Assembly (NCBI GenBank): GCA_012267435.1
Contig: JAAXGM010000009.1
Span: 1 to 48,902, forward strand
Length of the DNA: 48,902 bases
Reading direction: 5' to 3'
Source: Gemmatimonadota bacterium
GTDB taxonomy: Bacteria > Gemmatimonadota > Gemmatimonadetes > Longimicrobiales > Gaopeijiaceae
A model generated the notes under the pieces. It was given only the letters and a program-made list of their open reading frames with translations. It did not search any database and was not told the DNA's origin. Shown here one piece after another: positions 1 to 19,783 of this stretch (positions within the stretch are counted from its first letter, which is position 1; the number at the start of each line of letters is the position of its first letter). The position numbers and the translations under genes were made by a program.

Positions 1-1005
1 ATCCAGCAGGCCAGAAGGGACTTCGCGGTCGTCATCCCCGCATACAACGAGGCCCTCGTGGTCCCCGACCTGGTGCGCGAACTGCGGGAGGCTTTCCGCG
101 AGTTCCATCTCGACGGCGAAGTCGTGCTCGTGGACGACGGCTCCACCGATGGCACGGCGGACGTGGCCCGGCGCGAGGCGGCGGACTGGGACGGGTTTCG
201 CGTCGTCAGCCATCGGCGTAACCGGGGCAAGACCGAAGCGATGGTCACCGGTGTCGACGCCACCGATCGTCCCCGCATCATCCTCTTCGACGCCGATCTG
301 CAGCACTCCCCTCGCGACATTCCCCGCTTCCTGGAGAAGCTCGACGAAGGGTGGGACATCGTCTCCGGCCGGCGCCTCGGCCACTATGACAAAGCAGCGG
401 TCTCCGAGATCTACAACCGCATGTCGCGCTTGCTGTTCCGCGTGCCGGTCACCCACCTCAACTCCGCCATGAAGGGGTTTCGGCGGGAGATCTTGGACGG
501 ACTCACGCTCAGGCACGACTGGCATCGTTTTTTCGTCGTGCTGGCGCACGGGCGCGGGGCCACGGTCACGGAAATCGACATCAAGCTCTACGACCGCAGG
601 GCGGGCGAATCCAAATACCAGGGCCTGTGGCGGGTGGTGATCGGCGTCACCGACTTGGCATCCGTTGCCTTTCTGGTGTTCTTTTCTCGCAAGCCGCTGC
701 TCTTGTTCGGTGCCTCCGGACTGGCATTGGCGGCTCTGGGAGGGGTCGTCGCGGCGGCCGCGCTCTATCTGCGCTACCTGCATCCCGCACTGGGATTCGA
801 GCCCTACGTACCCCCCTTCGGCTACCGTCCGCTGATCCAGTTGGTGGTTTTGCTTGAGACGCTCGGGTTCCTCCTCGCGGGATTCGGCCTGATCAGCGAG
901 CAGATCGCCCACGTCCGGCACGAGGTCGAGGCGCTGCGACGCCAGTTGGCCGACGGGACACGCGATGATGCAGGGTCCCGCCAACGCCGCCGGAGACCGG
1001 ACTGA
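1..1005 (+). CDS. Family 2 glycosyltransferase (dolichyl-phosphate mannose synthase/ArnC-like) with C-terminal TM region; 5' truncated by window edge
   Basis: Frame open from base 1 (IQQARRDFAVVIPAYNEA), DDGSTDGT and DADLQH motifs, two hydrophobic C-terminal segments. Confidence 0.9.
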   Translation: MQQARRDFAVVIPAYNEALVVPDLVRELREAFREFHLDGEVVLVDDGSTDGTADVARREAADWDGFRVVSHRRNRGKTEAMVTGVDATDRPRIILFDADLQHSPRDIPRFLEKLDEGWDIVSGRRLGHYDKAAVSEIYNRMSRLLFRVPVTHLNSAMKGFRREILDGLTLRHDWHRFFVVLAHGRGATVTEIDIKLYDRRAGESKYQGLWRVVIGVTDLASVAFLVFFSRKPLLLFGASGLALAALGGVVAAAALYLRYLHPALGFEPYVPPFGYRPLIQLVVLLETLGFLLAGFGLISEQIAHVRHEVEALRRQLADGTRDDAGSRQRRRRPD

Positions 1006-1051
1006 GCGGCATGCACGGGCTGAAGGGAGGCGGAACCGTGGAACGAGATCG

Positions 1052-3628
1052 ATGAGCGCGAAGCGACGAGGCGGCCGAAAGCGGACGCGAAAGCCGCGCG
1101 TGGAGGCAACCTCCGTGGGCATGGGCGCCCCTTCGCGCGGGCCGGCAGCCCGCGGCGGCGCTCCCGCCATTCCCCAGTGGCTTCCGTGGACGCTCTTCCT
1201 CGGGCTCACCGTCTTCCTGTTCCGCGCGTTCATCTTCAGCGACGCCATGCTCTACGGGAGCGACACGCTGGCCGCCGGCTACGTGGGCCGGTCCATCTAC
1301 GCAACCGCGCTGGCGGAGCTGGGGCGCATCCCGGGCTGGGTCCCGCAGTTCCTCGGCGGGACGCCCTTTGTGGAAGCCCTCAGCGCGGGCGATTCCTTCT
1401 ACCCGCCTTCTCTCCTGCTGCTCATCCTCGTGGAGCCCTACCGGGCGCTCGGATGGAAGCTCATCATCCACGTCGCGGCGGCGGGCTTCTTCATGTTCCT
1501 CTGGGTGCGCGCGCTGGGGGTCTCCCGGGCCGCGGCGCTGGTTGCCGGAACCGGCTACATGCTCGCCCCGGTCTTCGTCGGGCTCGTGTTTGCGGGTCAC
1601 GACGGCAAGATGTTCGTCACCGCGCTGGCCCCGCTCCTGTTCTGGGCGACGGAGCGCCACTTCCTGCGTCCCGGTCTCAAGTCGTTCACCTGGCTGGCCC
1701 TGGTGATCGCGTTGGTGATCCTGACGCCGCACTTCCAGATGGCGTACTTCCTGTTCGGCGCCACCGGGCTGTTCGCGATCTTCCGCGGCATTCAGATCCA
1801 CCGTGGGACGAGTGCGGAAGCCGTTACCGGGGCGGACGACAATCCAGCGGATGCAGACGCCGCCGGGACGCGCTCCGGCTCGCGGTCGCGGGCGACCTCC
1901 CGCTTCGGTCTGTTTCTCGCGGCGTCGATCGCGGGCGCGCTCATCGCAGGCGGCCAGCTCCTGCCGGCCATCGACTACGTGACCGCCGATTCCCGGCGCA
2001 CCGCGACCTCCGAAGCGCTCGACGAGCAGGCCGCGCTTGAGTGGTCCAGTTCCTGGTCGCTGCACCCGGAGGAAGCCTTTTCCCTCGTCGTCCCGGAATT
2101 CGCGGGAGCCAACATCAGCGGTACGGGAAGCTGGGCGGACAACACCTACTGGGGCCGCAACCCGTTCAAGCACAACCACGAATACGCCGGCTTGGTGCTG
2201 CTCCTGCTTGCCGCGATTTCGTTCGTGGGCGGGCGCCGGCGCGGGCTGCGCCGGTTCTTCGCGGGGCTGGCGGGGACTGCGCTTCTCTTCGCTCTCGGGA
2301 CCCATACCCCCGTCTGGCGCATCACCTTCGAGCTCCTGCCCGGCATCAGCCTCTTCAGGGCTCCCTCTCAGGCGGCCTACCTAGTCGCCTTCAGCGCGGC
2401 GACGCTGGCGGCCCTGGGGGTGGACCGCATCTTCGCGTGCGTCCGGGATCCCGAGCTGGGACGGCGGGTCCAGCGGCTGGTTCTGGTCGCCACCGGCGCG
2501 CTGGGAGCCGTAGCGCTGCTCGCCGCCGCGGGCACGCTGACGTCTCTGTGGACCTCGGTCCTCTATCCCGGAATCACCGACGCCAAGCGCCAGGCGCTGG
2601 CGGCCGCGCTGCCCCACATCGGGACCGGCGCCTGGATCGCGGTGTTTCTCGCCGGGGCAGTGGCGGCGCTGGTGTGGGCGATTCGGCAGGCGTACGTGCC
2701 GCCCGGGATCGTACTGGGCGCGCTCCTCGCCTTGGTCGTGCTGGACGCCCACCGCATAGACCGCGTGTTCATCCAGACCATCGACTTCGGGCGCTGGGCG
2801 GCCCCGGACGCCAACATCCAGGCAGTCCTGGACCGCGAGGCCGGCAGCTCCGAACCCTACCGCATGCTGTCCTTCCGAAACGCCGGCCAGGACCTCATGC
2901 CGGCGCTGCACGGCATCGAACTCGCCGGAGGGCACCACCCCAACGACCTGGCCCGTTACCGCGATCTCATCGGCATGGTGGGCTCCGGGCAGCCGATGAA
3001 CCTCTACGGCAGTGAAACCATCCGCAGGCTGCTCAACGTGCGCTACCTGCTCTGGCCCGATCTGCAGATGGGGAGTTCGCCGCGGGGCAATGTCTTCAGC
3101 CGGACGCAACTGCCCGACGGCCGCACCTACGAGACGGTCTTCCTGGTGGCCGGCCTTCCGCGCGCGCGCTTGGTCGGAAGCGCCGTCGTCAAGTCCGACG
3201 ACGAGGCGATGGCGTACATGCTCTCTCCCGGGTTCGACCCCGCGGCGGAGGTGGTGCTGGCGGAGCCACCGCCCTCCGACCTGCCGGGCGCGCCCGTCGC
3301 GGGCGAGGTCGACTGGCTGGAGCGCGGCCCCGACCGCATGAGGCTCGCCGTACGCTCCTCCGCTCCGGCGCTGCTCGCCATTGCGGACAACTGGTACCCC
3401 GCCTGGCACGCCCGCGTGAACGGCCGCGACACCCCCGTGCTGCGCGCCTACCACACCCTGCGCGCCGTTCCCGTGCCGGCGGGGGAATCCGAGGTCGAGT
3501 TGTGGTACCGGTCCGACGTGGTGCTGCGCAGCTTCTGGCTCGGCTTCATCATCCTGACCGGCCTGCTCGCGGCCAACGCGGTCCGGATCTGGTCGGCCCG
3601 CCGCGCGACCCGGAGTGCGAAGCCCTGA
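1052..3628 (+). CDS. YfhO family polytopic membrane protein
   Basis: 858 aa polytopic protein, YfhO-like C-terminal NWYPAWHARVNGRDTPVLRAYHTLRAVPVPAG; start set at internal ATG (MSAKRRGGRKRT). Confidence 0.8.
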   Translation: MSAKRRGGRKRTRKPRVEATSVGMGAPSRGPAARGGAPAIPQWLPWTLFLGLTVFLFRAFIFSDAMLYGSDTLAAGYVGRSIYATALAELGRIPGWVPQFLGGTPFVEALSAGDSFYPPSLLLLILVEPYRALGWKLIIHVAAAGFFMFLWVRALGVSRAAALVAGTGYMLAPVFVGLVFAGHDGKMFVTALAPLLFWATERHFLRPGLKSFTWLALVIALVILTPHFQMAYFLFGATGLFAIFRGIQIHRGTSAEAVTGADDNPADADAAGTRSGSRSRATSRFGLFLAASIAGALIAGGQLLPAIDYVTADSRRTATSEALDEQAALEWSSSWSLHPEEAFSLVVPEFAGANISGTGSWADNTYWGRNPFKHNHEYAGLVLLLLAAISFVGGRRRGLRRFFAGLAGTALLFALGTHTPVWRITFELLPGISLFRAPSQAAYLVAFSAATLAALGVDRIFACVRDPELGRRVQRLVLVATGALGAVALLAAAGTLTSLWTSVLYPGITDAKRQALAAALPHIGTGAWIAVFLAGAVAALVWAIRQAYVPPGIVLGALLALVVLDAHRIDRVFIQTIDFGRWAAPDANIQAVLDREAGSSEPYRMLSFRNAGQDLMPALHGIELAGGHHPNDLARYRDLIGMVGSGQPMNLYGSETIRRLLNVRYLLWPDLQMGSSPRGNVFSRTQLPDGRTYETVFLVAGLPRARLVGSAVVKSDDEAMAYMLSPGFDPAAEVVLAEPPPSDLPGAPVAGEVDWLERGPDRMRLAVRSSAPALLAIADNWYPAWHARVNGRDTPVLRAYHTLRAVPVPAGESEVELWYRSDVVLRSFWLGFIILTGLLAANAVRIWSARRATRSAKP

Positions 3629-4560
3629 AGAAGTGGCTTTCCCTGGCGGCGCGCGTCGCCCTCACGGTCATCGTCACCTGGTTCATCCTCGATCGAGTGG
3701 GGCTGACCGTGGCCGAACTCCGGGAATGGCAGGATGTGCTTGCCCGTCCACGGCTGGTCCCGCTCTCCGCCGCGACGCTGCTTCTGCTTGCATCGTACGC
3801 CCTCAGTTCCCTGATCTGGGGTGGTGTGGTGACCGGGCTCGGCGGACCTCGGCTGGCTGCGCGCGATGCCGTGAGCATCTTCATGATCGCCAATCTGGGC
3901 CGGTATGTGCCCGGCAAGGTCTGGTCGATCGCGGGGATGGCCGCGCTCGCGAAGGGGAAGGGGATACCCGTGGCGGTCTCGGCCACCTCGGCCGTGATCA
4001 TGCAGGGCGTGGGGCTGTTGGCCGCCGGCGCAATCGGGCTGGGCGCGTTCGCCGGAGGACCCCCGCCGCTCCCGCGCTGGGGACTGACCGGCGTCGGGGT
4101 GGCGGCCGGCCTGCTGCTGCTCGTGCTGGTCGTTCCCTCCCTGTTCCGCCGGGTGGTTGCCCTGTGGTTCCGCATGGTCCGGACCAGTCCTCCGGCGAAC
4201 TTGACCGCCAAGCTGGTGCTGCGCTGGCTGCTGCAGCTTACGGTGGCCTGGGTGGCCATGGGCGCATCCTTCTGGATCGTGGCCGCGAGCCTGGGCATGG
4301 AGCTTTCGCCCGTGTACGCCGGCTCCGCCTTCGCGGCGGCCTATGTGGCGGGCTACCTGATGCTCTTCGCACCGGCGGGCGTCGGCGTTCGCGAGGGGTT
4401 TCTGGTCGCTTTTCTCGCGCCCGAGCTGGGAAGCGGCCCGGCCACCGTACTCGCCATTGCCGTCCGGCTCTGGATGACCGCCGCAGAGGTGATTCCCGCC
4501 GCCGCACTGTGGGCGTTCCATCAGCGGTCGCTGTCGCAGCTCGATCCGAAGCAAGGTTGA
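3625..4560 (+). CDS. Flippase-like / lysylphosphatidylglycerol synthase TM region (UPF0104) protein, probable CTG start
   Basis: (M)KKWLSLAARVALTVIVTWFILDRVG..., GRYVPGKVWSIAGM, multiple TM; CTGA overlap with upstream stop and GGAG 9 nt before CTG. Confidence 0.75.
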   Translation: MKKWLSLAARVALTVIVTWFILDRVGLTVAELREWQDVLARPRLVPLSAATLLLLASYALSSLIWGGVVTGLGGPRLAARDAVSIFMIANLGRYVPGKVWSIAGMAALAKGKGIPVAVSATSAVIMQGVGLLAAGAIGLGAFAGGPPPLPRWGLTGVGVAAGLLLLVLVVPSLFRRVVALWFRMVRTSPPANLTAKLVLRWLLQLTVAWVAMGASFWIVAASLGMELSPVYAGSAFAAAYVAGYLMLFAPAGVGVREGFLVAFLAPELGSGPATVLAIAVRLWMTAAEVIPAAALWAFHQRSLSQLDPKQG

Positions 4561-6688: not shown

Positions 6689-7585
6689 TCACGGGGTCCA
6701 CACCACGTCGACCGCTCCGATGTGCGCGTCGATTTCCATCGTAAGCCGCGTTTCGGCGCTATCCCAGTCCGGGGAGAAGTAGCTGTCGCCTCGTCTGAAC
6801 ATTTCCTGGGCATCGACGGATGTCAGAAGCGCGTCCACCACCAGTTGCACGCCGAGCCCCCGCGGAAAGCGAAGTTCCACCGCGCCCAGGTCCAGGGCGA
6901 GATCCACATCGGCGTCGCGCTGCCATTCCCCGCCGAAGTCCAAGGTTGCCTTGCCCGCCTTCGCCTCCAGTCGGATGCGCTCGGCGTTGAGGTTGCCGAG
7001 CCCGGTGGCGACCAGGTTTGCCGCGCCTGCCTCGAAGACGGCGAGTTCCAATTGCGCGGGGTTGGGCATCGACACCTCGATTCGCGTATCGGATGCCCCG
7101 GTCTCGACATGCAGCTCCCTAATCGCGAGCCCTCCCAGATCCAGGTCCGCCCGCGCGGCCCCGAACTCCAGGTCCAGCAACAGGGCAACTTCCGGCGACA
7201 GTTCCAGATCCAGTCGCCCCGATCCGTCGCGTGAGCCCATGCGAATGCCTCTGCCGACCCGATCCATGCCGATCTCGAGGATTCCGTCCTCGTAGTGGGT
7301 CCGCGGCTCCATGAGATCCTGATCGTATCGAAGCTCCATCCGGTACAGGGTGCCCGGCTCCCCCGGACGCACGTCGAGGACGCCCGCTCCATATTCCACG
7401 TGGACGTGGACCTCGCGCTCGCCACTCAGCTGGCGCGACGCGGTCACGGTGCTCCAATCCTGGGCCGTCAGCCCGGTCGCCGTGCAAGCCAGCCCTCCGA
7501 TCGCCGCGCAAGTCACCCTTGCCAGCCCGGCGGCGCCTCGCCGCTCTCGGTGCACGCGCGGATTCATCCACGGACTGCTACTCAT
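6689..7585 (-). CDS. Secreted toastrack/LiaF-like adhesin-type protein
   Basis: VHVEYGAGVLDVRPGEPGTLYRMELRYD and repeated beta-solenoid-like pattern; signal peptide ending near LTAQD; SD GGAGG-CACCC-ATG at 7585. Confidence 0.7.
   Translation of the reverse strand: MSSSPWMNPRVHRERRGAAGLARVTCAAIGGLACTATGLTAQDWSTVTASRQLSGEREVHVHVEYGAGVLDVRPGEPGTLYRMELRYDQDLMEPRTHYEDGILEIGMDRVGRGIRMGSRDGSGRLDLELSPEVALLLDLEFGAARADLDLGGLAIRELHVETGASDTRIEVSMPNPAQLELAVFEAGAANLVATGLGNLNAERIRLEAKAGKATLDFGGEWQRDADVDLALDLGAVELRFPRGLGVQLVVDALLTSVDAQEMFRRGDSYFSPDWDSAETRLTMEIDAHIGAVDVVWTP
7517..7579 (-). repeat. Dispersed repeat copy A
   Basis: AGCAGTCCGTGGATGAATCCGCGCGTGCACCGAGAGCGGCGAGGCGCCGCCGGGCTGGCAAGG (minus strand); 56/60 identical to copy B apart from a 3-nt insertion. 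Confidence 0.9.
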
Positions 7586-13156: not shown

Positions 13157-14760
13157 GGGTCGGTGTCTCCGGTCCGCTTCACGAGGGTGGCGACGGTTCG
13201 GTTGTCGCGCGTGAAATAGGTTTGCACCACGCGTTGCACGTCCGCGGGCTGGACGTTGTAGAGCAGGGCGGTCCGCTCGAAGGTGGTCCGCCAGTTTCCG
13301 TAATGGGTGACCGAGCCGGCAAGCTGAAGCGCGAGTCCGAGGTTGGATTGAAGGCGCCGCACGCCGGACGCCACCAGCTGGTTGCGCACGCGCCGCAGCT
13401 CCCTCTGTTCGGGAGGTTCCAGCGCGAGGCGCTCGATTTCCTCGTAGAGGGCCGCTTCGATGTCGGCGGGGGTGCTCGGCGCGCGTGGGGTTACGTGGAC
13501 GACGAACTGTCCCGGGAAGCGCGATCCCGGCACGGTGGTGGCGGTGACCGCGGCGGCCAGGCGGTCCTGCGTGACCAGGCGACGGTAGAGACGGGAGGTG
13601 CGCCGCCCCGCCAGCACGGACGCCAGCATGGTGAGCGCCGGGCTGTCCGGGTGGTGACCGCTCACCGTGTGCCACCCCACCCGCAGCTGCGGCTCGGCGT
13701 CCATTACCAGCTCCACCCGGCGCTCGCCGCGCTGCGGAGGCTCGACGGCGAGGACCGGGGGAGGGGGGTCGCCGGACCGGATGTCGCCCAGGTAGTCGCG
13801 CGCCCAGGCTGTGATCGAATCCGGCGCCACGTCGCCCACGATCGCGACCACGGCATTGCGGGCGCCGTAGTAGCGCCGGTGGTACTCCTCCACGTCGCGG
13901 CGCGACAGCCGCTCCAAGTCCGACATGTACCCGACCACCGGAACCCCGTAGGGGTGCATCAGGAACGCCGTCGCCAGGTGGACCTCGTGCAGAAGGCCGC
14001 CCGGGTTGGTGTCCACCCGGGTGCGGCGCTCCTCCATGACCACGTCTCGCTCGGTATAGAATTCGCGAAAGACGGGGTTGTGCGCCCGGTCGCTCTCGAG
14101 CAGGAACCACATCTTGGCCCGGTTGGCCGGAAGTTCCACGAAATAGGTCGTAGCCTCCGAGGAGGTGGTTGCGTTGAGGTTGCGGGCGCCGTTTCTCGTG
14201 AGGATGCGGCTGAACTCGTTGGAGACCACGGGGGTCTGTGCCTGGCCCTCATAGGCTTTGACACGTTCCCGGAGCGCGCTGAGGCGGGTGGTGTCGGTCG
14301 CTGGCGCGGACAACTCTGCGAGCAGGGAGTCGTGCGCGGCGTCCATGCGCGCGAAGAGATCGAGCTCGGTTTCCACGTCGCGGGTGCCCACCGTGGTGGT
14401 GCCCTTGAAGAGCATGTGCTCGAGGAGATGGGCCGTGCCGGTCGTCCCGAGCGTCTCGTTCACGCCCCCGACCGCGTACTCGACGACGAACGCCGCCGTG
14501 GGGGCCGATGGACGCGGGAGGATCAGCAGGCGCAGCCCGTTGTCAAGCGTCAGTTCCCGCACGGGAAGGTCGGGAACGATGCCGTCCTGGCCCGAGGCCC
14601 GCTCGGGCAGCGAGCTGAGCGCAGCCAGAATCAGGGTCGGGAGGACCCTGGGGGCCTGCGAGCGAAACCGCGCCGCCATCCGTCCTCCGAAGCGCCTTGC
14701 CGGCCCGGCGCCTCGCCGCTCTCGGTGCTCGGACGGATTCATCCACGGACTGCTGGTCAT
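13153..14760 (-). CDS. M16 family zinc peptidase (catalytic), signal peptide; alternative start ATG at 14679
   Basis: TAHLLEHMLFKGTTTVG (HxxEH) and M16 C-terminal domain; alternative start MAARFRSQAPRVLPTLILAALSSLPERASGQ preceded by GGAGG. Confidence 0.88.
   Translation of the reverse strand: MTSSPWMNPSEHRERRGAGPARRFGGRMAARFRSQAPRVLPTLILAALSSLPERASGQDGIVPDLPVRELTLDNGLRLLILPRPSAPTAAFVVEYAVGGVNETLGTTGTAHLLEHMLFKGTTTVGTRDVETELDLFARMDAAHDSLLAELSAPATDTTRLSALRERVKAYEGQAQTPVVSNEFSRILTRNGARNLNATTSSEATTYFVELPANRAKMWFLLESDRAHNPVFREFYTERDVVMEERRTRVDTNPGGLLHEVHLATAFLMHPYGVPVVGYMSDLERLSRRDVEEYHRRYYGARNAVVAIVGDVAPDSITAWARDYLGDIRSGDPPPPVLAVEPPQRGERRVELVMDAEPQLRVGWHTVSGHHPDSPALTMLASVLAGRRTSRLYRRLVTQDRLAAAVTATTVPGSRFPGQFVVHVTPRAPSTPADIEAALYEEIERLALEPPEQRELRRVRNQLVASGVRRLQSNLGLALQLAGSVTHYGNWRTTFERTALLYNVQPADVQRVVQTYFTRDNRTVATLVKRTGDTDP
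14691..14754 (-). repeat. Dispersed repeat copy B
   Basis: AGCAGTCCGTGGATGAATCCGTCCGAGCACCGAGAGCGGCGAGGCGCCGGGCCGGCAAGGCGCT (minus strand); 59/64 identical to copy C. Confidence 0.92.
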
Positions 14761-15587
14761 TGATGTGGTGGCTGGCAGCGGGGACAGTGGAACGCCGATC
14801 GGTTGCCGATCACCGTCTTAAGGACGACCCCCGGACACTTCACGCAGGGCTGGCCTTCCCGACCGTATATCACCAGACGGGGACCGAACGATCCTTCGAG
14901 CCCGGCGGGGTCGCGGTAGTCGCGCAGGGTCGTCCCGCAGGCGGCGATGGCGGCCCGCAGCACCCTGCGGATGGATCGGTGCAGGGGCGCGACCCTGGCC
15001 GCCGGAATCGCGCGCGCCGGCACGGCCGGGTGGATGCCGGCGAGAAACAGCGCCTCATTCGCATAGATGTTCCCGATTCCGGCCACGCGCCGCTGGTCGA
15101 GCAGCCACGAACGGATCGGGGAGCGGGAGCGGGCGAGTTCGGCCGCAAGACGGCGGGCGGTGAACGCGCGGCTGAGAGGTTCGAGCCCCAGCGTGCGCGA
15201 CCAGCTCCGCCACGAGCGCCCGGAGAAGCGCTGCAACCGCCCGAATCGACGCACGTCGCTGTAGACGGCCGCGTCGCCTCCGGCCAGATCGAAGGTGACG
15301 CCCGTGTGGACGGGGAGCGGAGTGGAGTCGCCGCGCGGATGGAACAGAAGGCGGCCGGTCATCCCTAGGTTGATGACCAGAACCGTGTCCGGGGAGCAGA
15401 ACCACACCACGTTCTTGCCCCGTCGTCCCACCTGGTCGATCCTGGCGCCGCCCATTCCGCGGGCGAAGGCGCCGGCCGGCTCCGACAGCAGATCAGGGCG
15501 CCGTACGCTCACACCGGAGATCGTCCGGCCGGCGAGGTGCGGCGCGAGGCCCCGCGCGATCGTCTCCGCTTCGGGAAGTTCGGGCAG
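14757..15587 (-). CDS. mutM: Formamidopyrimidine-DNA glycosylase, probable CTG start
   Basis: (M)PELPEAETIARGL..., RRGKN, DQRRVAGIGNIYANEALFLAGIHP, C-terminal zinc finger CVKC...CPRCQ; coding extends 25 codons upstream of the listed GTG at 15512. Confidence 0.92.
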   Translation of the reverse strand: MPELPEAETIARGLAPHLAGRTISGVSVRRPDLLSEPAGAFARGMGGARIDQVGRRGKNVVWFCSPDTVLVINLGMTGRLLFHPRGDSTPLPVHTGVTFDLAGGDAAVYSDVRRFGRLQRFSGRSWRSWSRTLGLEPLSRAFTARRLAAELARSRSPIRSWLLDQRRVAGIGNIYANEALFLAGIHPAVPARAIPAARVAPLHRSIRRVLRAAIAACGTTLRDYRDPAGLEGSFGPRLVIYGREGQPCVKCPGVVLKTVIGNRSAFHCPRCQPPHQ

Positions 15588-15629
15588 TCTGACTCCGGCG
15601 GCTGGAGGTGGGCGACGGTGAGGTGAGGA

Positions 15630-15938
15630 TCAGGTTTCCACGGCGGTGCCGGCCGCGGTCACCATGAGCATGTTATTGATCACCTCGTAGTCCAGGTCGA
15701 CGGACACGACCGCGTTGGCGCCCCGGTCGGCGGCGCGCTCGGCCATCTCGCGCAGGGCGTGCGCGCGTGCGTTGCTCAGCGCGCGCTCGTATGCGCCGGA
15801 ACGCCCGCCCACGACATCGCGGACGGCTGCAAACAGATCCTTGAAGATGTTGGCGCCGATGATCGCCTCCCCGGTGACGATGCCGAGATAGTCGCGCACG
15901 GGACGTCCTTCCAGCGTTGGCGTGGTGGTAATGATCAT
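15630..15938 (-). CDS. YbjQ/UPF0145 family protein
   Basis: [37 protein letters not shown]...GGRSGAYE...[27 protein letters not shown]. Confidence 0.93.
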
Positions 15939-19719: not shown

Positions 19720-19783
19720 AGCAGTCCGCGGATGAATCCGCCCGCGCACCGAGAGTGGCGAGGCGCCGGGCTGGCAAGGCGCT
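19720..19783 (+). repeat. Dispersed repeat copy C (possibly part of a longer element to ~19901)
   Basis: AGCAGTCCGCGGATGAATCCGCCCGCGCACCGAGAGTGGCGAGGCGCCGGGCTGGCAAGGCGCT; CAGTCCGCG recurs at 19893-19901. Confidence 0.9.

What the first reader, a model, noticed from the sequence alone, without database searches (positions are those of the whole stretch)
14757..15602. mutM appears to initiate at CTG
Fpg/MutM uses its N-terminal Pro (after Met removal) as catalytic nucleophile. The conserved PELPEAET is encoded directly after a CTG (15587-15585, minus strand), and reading upstream in frame I find no ATG/GTG/TTG before an in-frame TGA. GGAG lies 5 nt upstream of the CTG. The listed ORF starting at GTG 15512 would delete the catalytic residue.
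Basis: partly seen in the sequence, partly recalled or inferred. Interest (0 to 1): 0.6.

Follow-up and report, generated by a model that had tools for sequence, protein, structure and literature searches.

The report
DNA-repair gene mutM starts at CTG
In a genus of uncultured Gemmatimonadota bacteria, all eleven sequenced species begin the DNA-repair gene mutM with CTG, a start codon that hardly works in E. coli, and related bacteria begin a second gene the same way, so CTG appears to be a real, inherited start signal here.

Summary
On the minus strand, CTG (15587-15585) directly precedes the catalytic Pro-Glu codons of an intact Fpg/MutM. No ATG/GTG/TTG lies between it and the in-frame TGA of ybjQ (15632-15630), and GGAG lies 5 nt upstream. 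All 11 species of the genus carry CTG at this codon. In a class scan of 394 genomes, 346 have ATG/GTG/TTG there and only these 11 have CTG. This excludes a sequencing error and argues against a pseudogene. A start at GTG 15512 would remove the catalytic residues, and that GTG is GTC in one species.

CTG is not unique to mutM. A comparative scan found three genes that need a start upstream of every canonical codon; all three have an invariant CTG. One is a YbhN-like gene (window 3625-4560) whose CTG overlaps the upstream stop as CTGA. That CTG is shared by eight genera, while others have ATG, GTG or TTG at the same spot. Initiator tRNA and anti-SD are normal.

Best reading: genuine CUG initiation by ordinary fMet-tRNA, Shine-Dalgarno-guided and probably weak. 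No protein data exist.

The parts
15585..15587 (-). CTG, proposed start codon of mutM
   Evidence: invariant in 11/11 species of the genus; position of the initiator Met in PDB Fpg chains.
15593..15596 (-). GGAG, Shine-Dalgarno of mutM, 5-nt spacer to CTG
   Evidence: GGAG in 10 species, AAGGG at the same spacing in G001; 16S 3' end with CCTCC in three congeners.
14757..15587 (-). mutM/fpg coding sequence read from CTG (276 aa plus stop)
   Evidence: PRK01103 261.6 bits, cut-off 212, residues 1-272; PF01149, PF06831.
15579..15584 (-). Catalytic Pro-Glu codons (CCC GAA)
   Evidence: invariant in 11 species; role of Pro1-Glu2 in PMC5422863.
15510..15512 (-). GTG, codon 26: first canonical start in frame; would delete the catalytic residues
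   Evidence: GTC in G001.
15630..15938 (-). ybjQ, upstream gene; its TGA (15632-15630) is the in-frame stop upstream of the CTG, 42 nt away
   Evidence: PF01906.
3625..4560 (+). Second CTG-started gene in the window: YbhN-like, LPG_synthase_TM; CTG 3625-3627 overlaps the upstream stop as CTGA
   Evidence: PF03706; CTG in 10/10 congeners with the gene and in seven other genera.
965..3628 (+). YfhO-like gene upstream of the YbhN-like gene; its TGA 3626-3628 lies inside CTGA
   Evidence: (PF09586 below its cut-off).

Best explanation
mutM of this genus is translated from the CUG codon just before the catalytic proline. A normal 30S subunit is placed by the GGAG (or AAGGG) Shine-Dalgarno, perhaps helped by ribosomes that have just finished ybjQ 42 nt upstream. 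Ordinary fMet-tRNA (anticodon CAU) decodes CUG with a first-position mismatch, and methionine aminopeptidase removes Met to expose Pro1. The protein is ordinary Fpg/MutM; what is unusual is a weak start codon fixed in a genus. Low MutM output is the expected result. CUG starts occur in other genes of the family, notably as CTGA overlaps. Shown from sequence: the codon, its conservation, the Shine-Dalgarno, the coding boundary, normal initiator tRNA and anti-SD. Inferred: actual initiation at CUG, its strength, coupling to ybjQ, any IF3 dependence.
For: CTG sits exactly where the family has its initiator codon: in the class scan 346 of 394 genomes have ATG/GTG/TTG there and 11, all of this genus, have CTG. 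No canonical codon is available between the upstream stop and codon 26 in the window. The base before codon 2 marks a boundary: 27 changes in the 42 bases before CTG against 16 in the 72 bases of codons 2-25 (Fisher p = 1.7e-5). The Shine-Dalgarno is kept although its letters changed in G001. The enzyme needs a free N-terminal Pro (PMC5422863), so no upstream start would serve. In the YbhN-like gene CTG exchanges with ATG, GTG and TTG at the homologous site across genera, as a start codon should. Initiator tRNA and anti-SD are normal.
Against: No transcript, ribosome-profiling or protein data. In E. coli CUG gives 0.86% of AUG output (PMC11497404). Invariance of CTG alone is weak: 11 of 25 Leu CTN columns in the same gene are equally invariant. 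The third-position contrast between codons 2-25 and the upstream bases is not significant alone (p = 0.21). G001 has an in-frame GTG 18 codons upstream, although a start there would bury the catalytic Pro.
Confidence: 0.9

Rival explanations
1. Translation starts at GTG 15512 and gives an N-terminally truncated, catalytically dead MutM.
For: It is the first canonical codon in frame in the window and is what a standard ORF list reports.
Against: It removes Pro2 and Glu3, which are invariant in 11 species. The GTG is GTC in G001. Codons 2-25 change at a third of the rate of the bases upstream of CTG. Family models match from residue 1.
Confidence: 0.04
2. The CTG is an assembly or sequencing error, or the gene is a decaying pseudogene.
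For: The window genome is a fragmented metagenome assembly, 68% complete.
Against: The same CTG is in 11 separately assembled species; the frame is intact with strong third-position excess and invariant catalytic motifs.
Confidence: 0.01
3. Translation begins further upstream (another rare codon, or readthrough of the ybjQ TGA giving a YbjQ-MutM fusion) and the product is cut to expose Pro.
For: ybjQ and mutM are in the same frame with a single stop between them in the window.
Against: The 42 bases before CTG evolve like non-coding DNA (changes 6/9/12 at positions 1/2/3, 27 in 42 bases); G001 has a 52-nt insertion there; other genera start at this very codon with ATG/GTG/TTG.
Confidence: 0.02
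4. CUG is maintained by selection as a regulatory device that keeps MutM low or ties it to IF3 level (add-on to the best explanation, not an alternative to it).
For: CTG is kept in all 11 species although one substitution would give ATG, GTG or TTG. infC appears to start at ATA in three congeners, so start-codon discrimination by IF3 seems to be monitored as usual.
Against: 27 of 59 fourfold-degenerate C sites in the same gene are also invariant, so retention needs no selection. Whether CUG is IF3-sensitive here is unknown.
Confidence: 0.3

Closest known systems
Fpg/MutM DNA glycosylase (NCBIfam PRK01103, TIGR00577; Pfam PF01149, PF06831)
   Same: Full-length match, catalytic Pro-Glu, H2TH domain, two CxxC zinc-finger pairs.
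   Different: Start codon CTG instead of ATG/GTG/TTG.
Rare CUG start codons of bacteria (0.024% of annotated starts; PMC11497404, PMC5622118)
   Same: CUG read by normal initiator tRNA after a Shine-Dalgarno.
   Different: Here fixed in 11 species in a gene whose catalytic residue pins the start, and in the YbhN-like gene shared by eight genera; published switches to CUG are single events (4 among about 69,000 reconstructed starts, PMC5622118).
ATGA/GTGA four-base overlaps with termination-reinitiation
   Same: The YbhN-like and acylase genes overlap the upstream stop by four bases.
   Different: The overlap is CTGA; mutM itself has a 42-nt gap.
infC with a non-canonical start (AUU in E. coli, general knowledge)
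   Same: Another gene of this genus with no canonical start before codon 27, probably ATA.
   Different: Known kind of case with IF3 feedback; no such role is shown for mutM.

Membership tests
Fpg/MutM | Whole-length match above curated cut-off from residue 1 | tested here: met
   PRK01103 261.6 against 212 bits, TIGR00577 250.6 against 203.3 bits.
Fpg/MutM | Pro then Glu directly after the initiator residue | tested here: met
   Invariant in 11 species.
Fpg/MutM | H2TH domain and C-terminal zinc finger with four Cys | tested here: met
   PF06831 93.2 bits against 34.7; PF06827 19.8 bits, slightly below its 21.3 domain cut-off, but both CxxC pairs are present.
Fpg/MutM | Glycosylase/lyase activity on 8-oxoguanine | not testable with these tools
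   Needs protein.
Bacterial CUG start codon | CTG at the homologous start position, with no canonical alternative that keeps the protein intact | tested here: met
Bacterial CUG start codon | Shine-Dalgarno at proper spacing and anti-SD present | tested here: met
   GGAG or AAGGG 5 nt upstream; CCTCC in three congeners.
Bacterial CUG start codon | Standard initiator tRNA (anticodon CAU, three G-C stem pairs) | tested here: met
   Six congeners complete, one partial; the window genome's own copy was not found, its assembly is incomplete.
Bacterial CUG start codon | Translation shown to begin at CUG | not testable with these tools
   No proteomic or ribosome-profiling data.
Four-base-overlap (NTGA) coupled start | Start codon overlaps the upstream stop by four bases | tested here: not met
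   Not met for mutM (42-nt gap); met for the YbhN-like gene and the acylase gene.

The most novel reading that the evidence does not exclude
CUG is a regular fourth start codon in this Gemmatimonadota family: used by about 1-2% of genes, inherited over tens of species, and efficient enough for housekeeping functions because some feature of its ribosome or initiation factors tolerates the C-U mismatch; gene callers therefore systematically truncate its proteins.
Probability: 0.3. Interest if true: 0.7.

Novelty: new member of a known kind. Interest (0 to 1): 0.48.

Why it matters
CUG is the one NTG codon that bacteria avoid, and why is unsettled (PMC11497404). A CUG start fixed across a genus in a gene whose catalytic residue pins the start, plus one conserved across eight genera in a CTGA overlap, gives natural test cases for how CUG initiation can be kept. 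It also shows a practical fault: an ORF list limited to ATG/GTG/TTG shortens mutM by 25 residues, including its active site, and would wrongly suggest an inactive repair enzyme.

Tried and rejected
A per-codon Shine-Dalgarno enrichment test over 108 genes did not separate start codons from background and was dropped. Looser versions of the upstream-coding scan gave many false flags from overlapping frames. The final scan flagged eight genes; five have an obvious canonical start a few codons downstream. A control scan in genus g25 gave 0 flags among 55 genes, which does not differ from 3 of 144 (upper 95% limit 6.5%), so I do not claim that the window genus is special in its CTG rate. RNA folding of the mutM start region showed nothing evidently special. 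A mutant initiator tRNA was considered and rejected. No paper on CTG starts in Gemmatimonadota or on fpg with a CTG start was found in the held library.

Full report
Observation. The minus strand reads CCGGAGTCAGA-CTG-CCC-GAA-CTT-CCC-GAA with CTG at 15587-15585, GGAG at 15596-15593 and no ATG/GTG/TTG back to the in-frame TGA at 15632-15630, which is the stop of ybjQ. The frame matches the Fpg/MutM models over its whole length from residue 1 and aligns with solved Fpg structures with the Leu opposite their initiator Met. The first canonical codon in frame is GTG 15512, codon 26.

Error or pseudogene. The window genome is a 2.0-Mb, 68%-complete assembly. The ten other species of its genus encode MutM at 92-95% identity. 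Their named counterparts include the BD2-11 clade record MPMR01000002; two records are labelled Gammaproteobacteria, evidently wrongly. All ten have CTG at the same codon. A degenerate pattern for the N-terminus found CTG before Pro-Glu-Leu-Pro-Glu in exactly these 11 of 394 class genomes, while the same pattern with ATG/GTG/TTG matched 346 genomes in 133 genera and none of the 11. The gene shows strong third-position excess, and the catalytic Pro-Glu and the GRRGKN and GNIYANEA motifs are invariant. An error is therefore excluded and a pseudogene is unlikely.

Where coding begins. Across the 11 species the 42 bases before CTG have 27 minimal changes, and codons 2-25 have 16 in 72 bases (Fisher p = 1.7e-5). 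Upstream changes hit all codon positions (6/9/12); downstream changes favour the third (3/2/11), although this contrast alone is not significant (p = 0.21). One species, G001, has a 52-nt insertion before the start and AAGGG in place of GGAG at the same spacing, so the ribosome-binding site is kept although its letters changed. The GTG at codon 26 is GTC in that species. Conservation of CTG is not by itself evidence of selection: 11 of 25 Leu CTN columns and 27 of 59 fourfold-degenerate C sites in the gene are equally invariant. The argument rests on the position, not on the invariance.

Is mutM alone? I compared a 440-kb contig of congener G009 with syntenic contigs of six others and asked which genes show a coding pattern upstream of every canonical start. 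Of 144 genes with at least two orthologues, eight were flagged; five have an obvious canonical start a few codons on. The remaining three are mutM, a YbhN-like membrane protein (PF03706) and a penicillin-acylase-like protein (named from its sequence by recall; no profile search was run on it). All three have an invariant CTG at the coding boundary after GGAG or GGAGG; mutM has one exception, AAGGG in G001. Three of 144 (95% interval 0.4-6%) compares with 0.024% CUG among bacterial start codons (PMC11497404). The binomial p is 7e-6, but the published figure rests on annotation, which in general knowledge rarely allows CTG, so it is a lower bound. A control scan in genus g25 gave 0 of 55, which does not differ significantly.

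The YbhN-like gene is the strongest support. Its CTG overlaps the upstream TGA as CTGA. Among the family members read, the homologous site is CTG in all g1, g6, g13, g20, g24, g37 and g39 genomes read and in four of five g34, TTG in the fifth g34, GTG in g4, and ATG in g7 and g31. Several copies have an in-frame stop upstream and no canonical codon before position +11 to +21, with GGAGG 4-6 nt before CTG (L224, L308, L310, L311). Exchange of C with A, G and T at one site is what is expected of a start codon.

Mechanism. Initiator tRNA in six congeners has anticodon CAU and the three G-C anticodon-stem pairs, so a re-matched tRNA is not the answer. The 16S 3' end carries CCTCC in three congeners. 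infC has no canonical start before codon 27 and appears to begin at ATA after GGAGG in three congeners, as expected if IF3 feedback on start-codon quality still operates (inference). The simplest mechanism is Shine-Dalgarno-placed initiation at CUG with a first-position mismatch, helped in the CTGA cases by termination-reinitiation and in mutM perhaps by ribosomes leaving ybjQ 42 nt upstream. In E. coli CUG gives 0.86% of AUG output (PMC11497404), so low MutM levels are predicted; whether that is selected is open.

Novelty. The enzyme is ordinary, and CUG starts are a known rarity. New are the fixation of CUG in a genus at a start pinned by catalysis, and its sharing across genera in a CTGA overlap. 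I file it as a new member of a known kind. The stronger claim, that this family uses CUG as a regular start codon, is not excluded but needs whole-genome counts and protein data.

Noticed in passing
window 3625-4560 (+): YbhN-like (LPG_synthase_TM) gene whose CTG start overlaps the upstream stop as CTGA; CTG at the homologous site in eight genera of the family, ATG/GTG/TTG in others.
   Followed up: yes
L140:3898 (+), G009:C8, and orthologues in five congeners: A penicillin-acylase-like gene also starts at CTG in a CTGA overlap, 7 nt after GGAGG, behind a gene ending ...RALEASR.
   Followed up: partly
L335, L337, L338 (infC): infC (IF3) has no ATG/GTG/TTG between an in-frame stop and codon 27 and appears to start at ATA, 8 nt after GGAGG.
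   Followed up: partly
window 7532-7579 (-), 14707-14754 (-), 19720-19767 (+): A dispersed repeat of about 50 bp (AGCAGTCCGTGGATGAATCCG...CACCGAGAGCGGCGAGGCGCC) in three copies; one lies directly after the mutM stop, over the listed 5' end of the M16 peptidase ORF, whose start may thus be listed too far upstream.
   Followed up: no
   Followed up: no
L002 (G000:C206): A second Fpg/Nei-type gene in the same genome starts at ordinary ATG with MPELPEVRLY, so CTG is not a feature of the whole glycosylase family here.
   Followed up: partly
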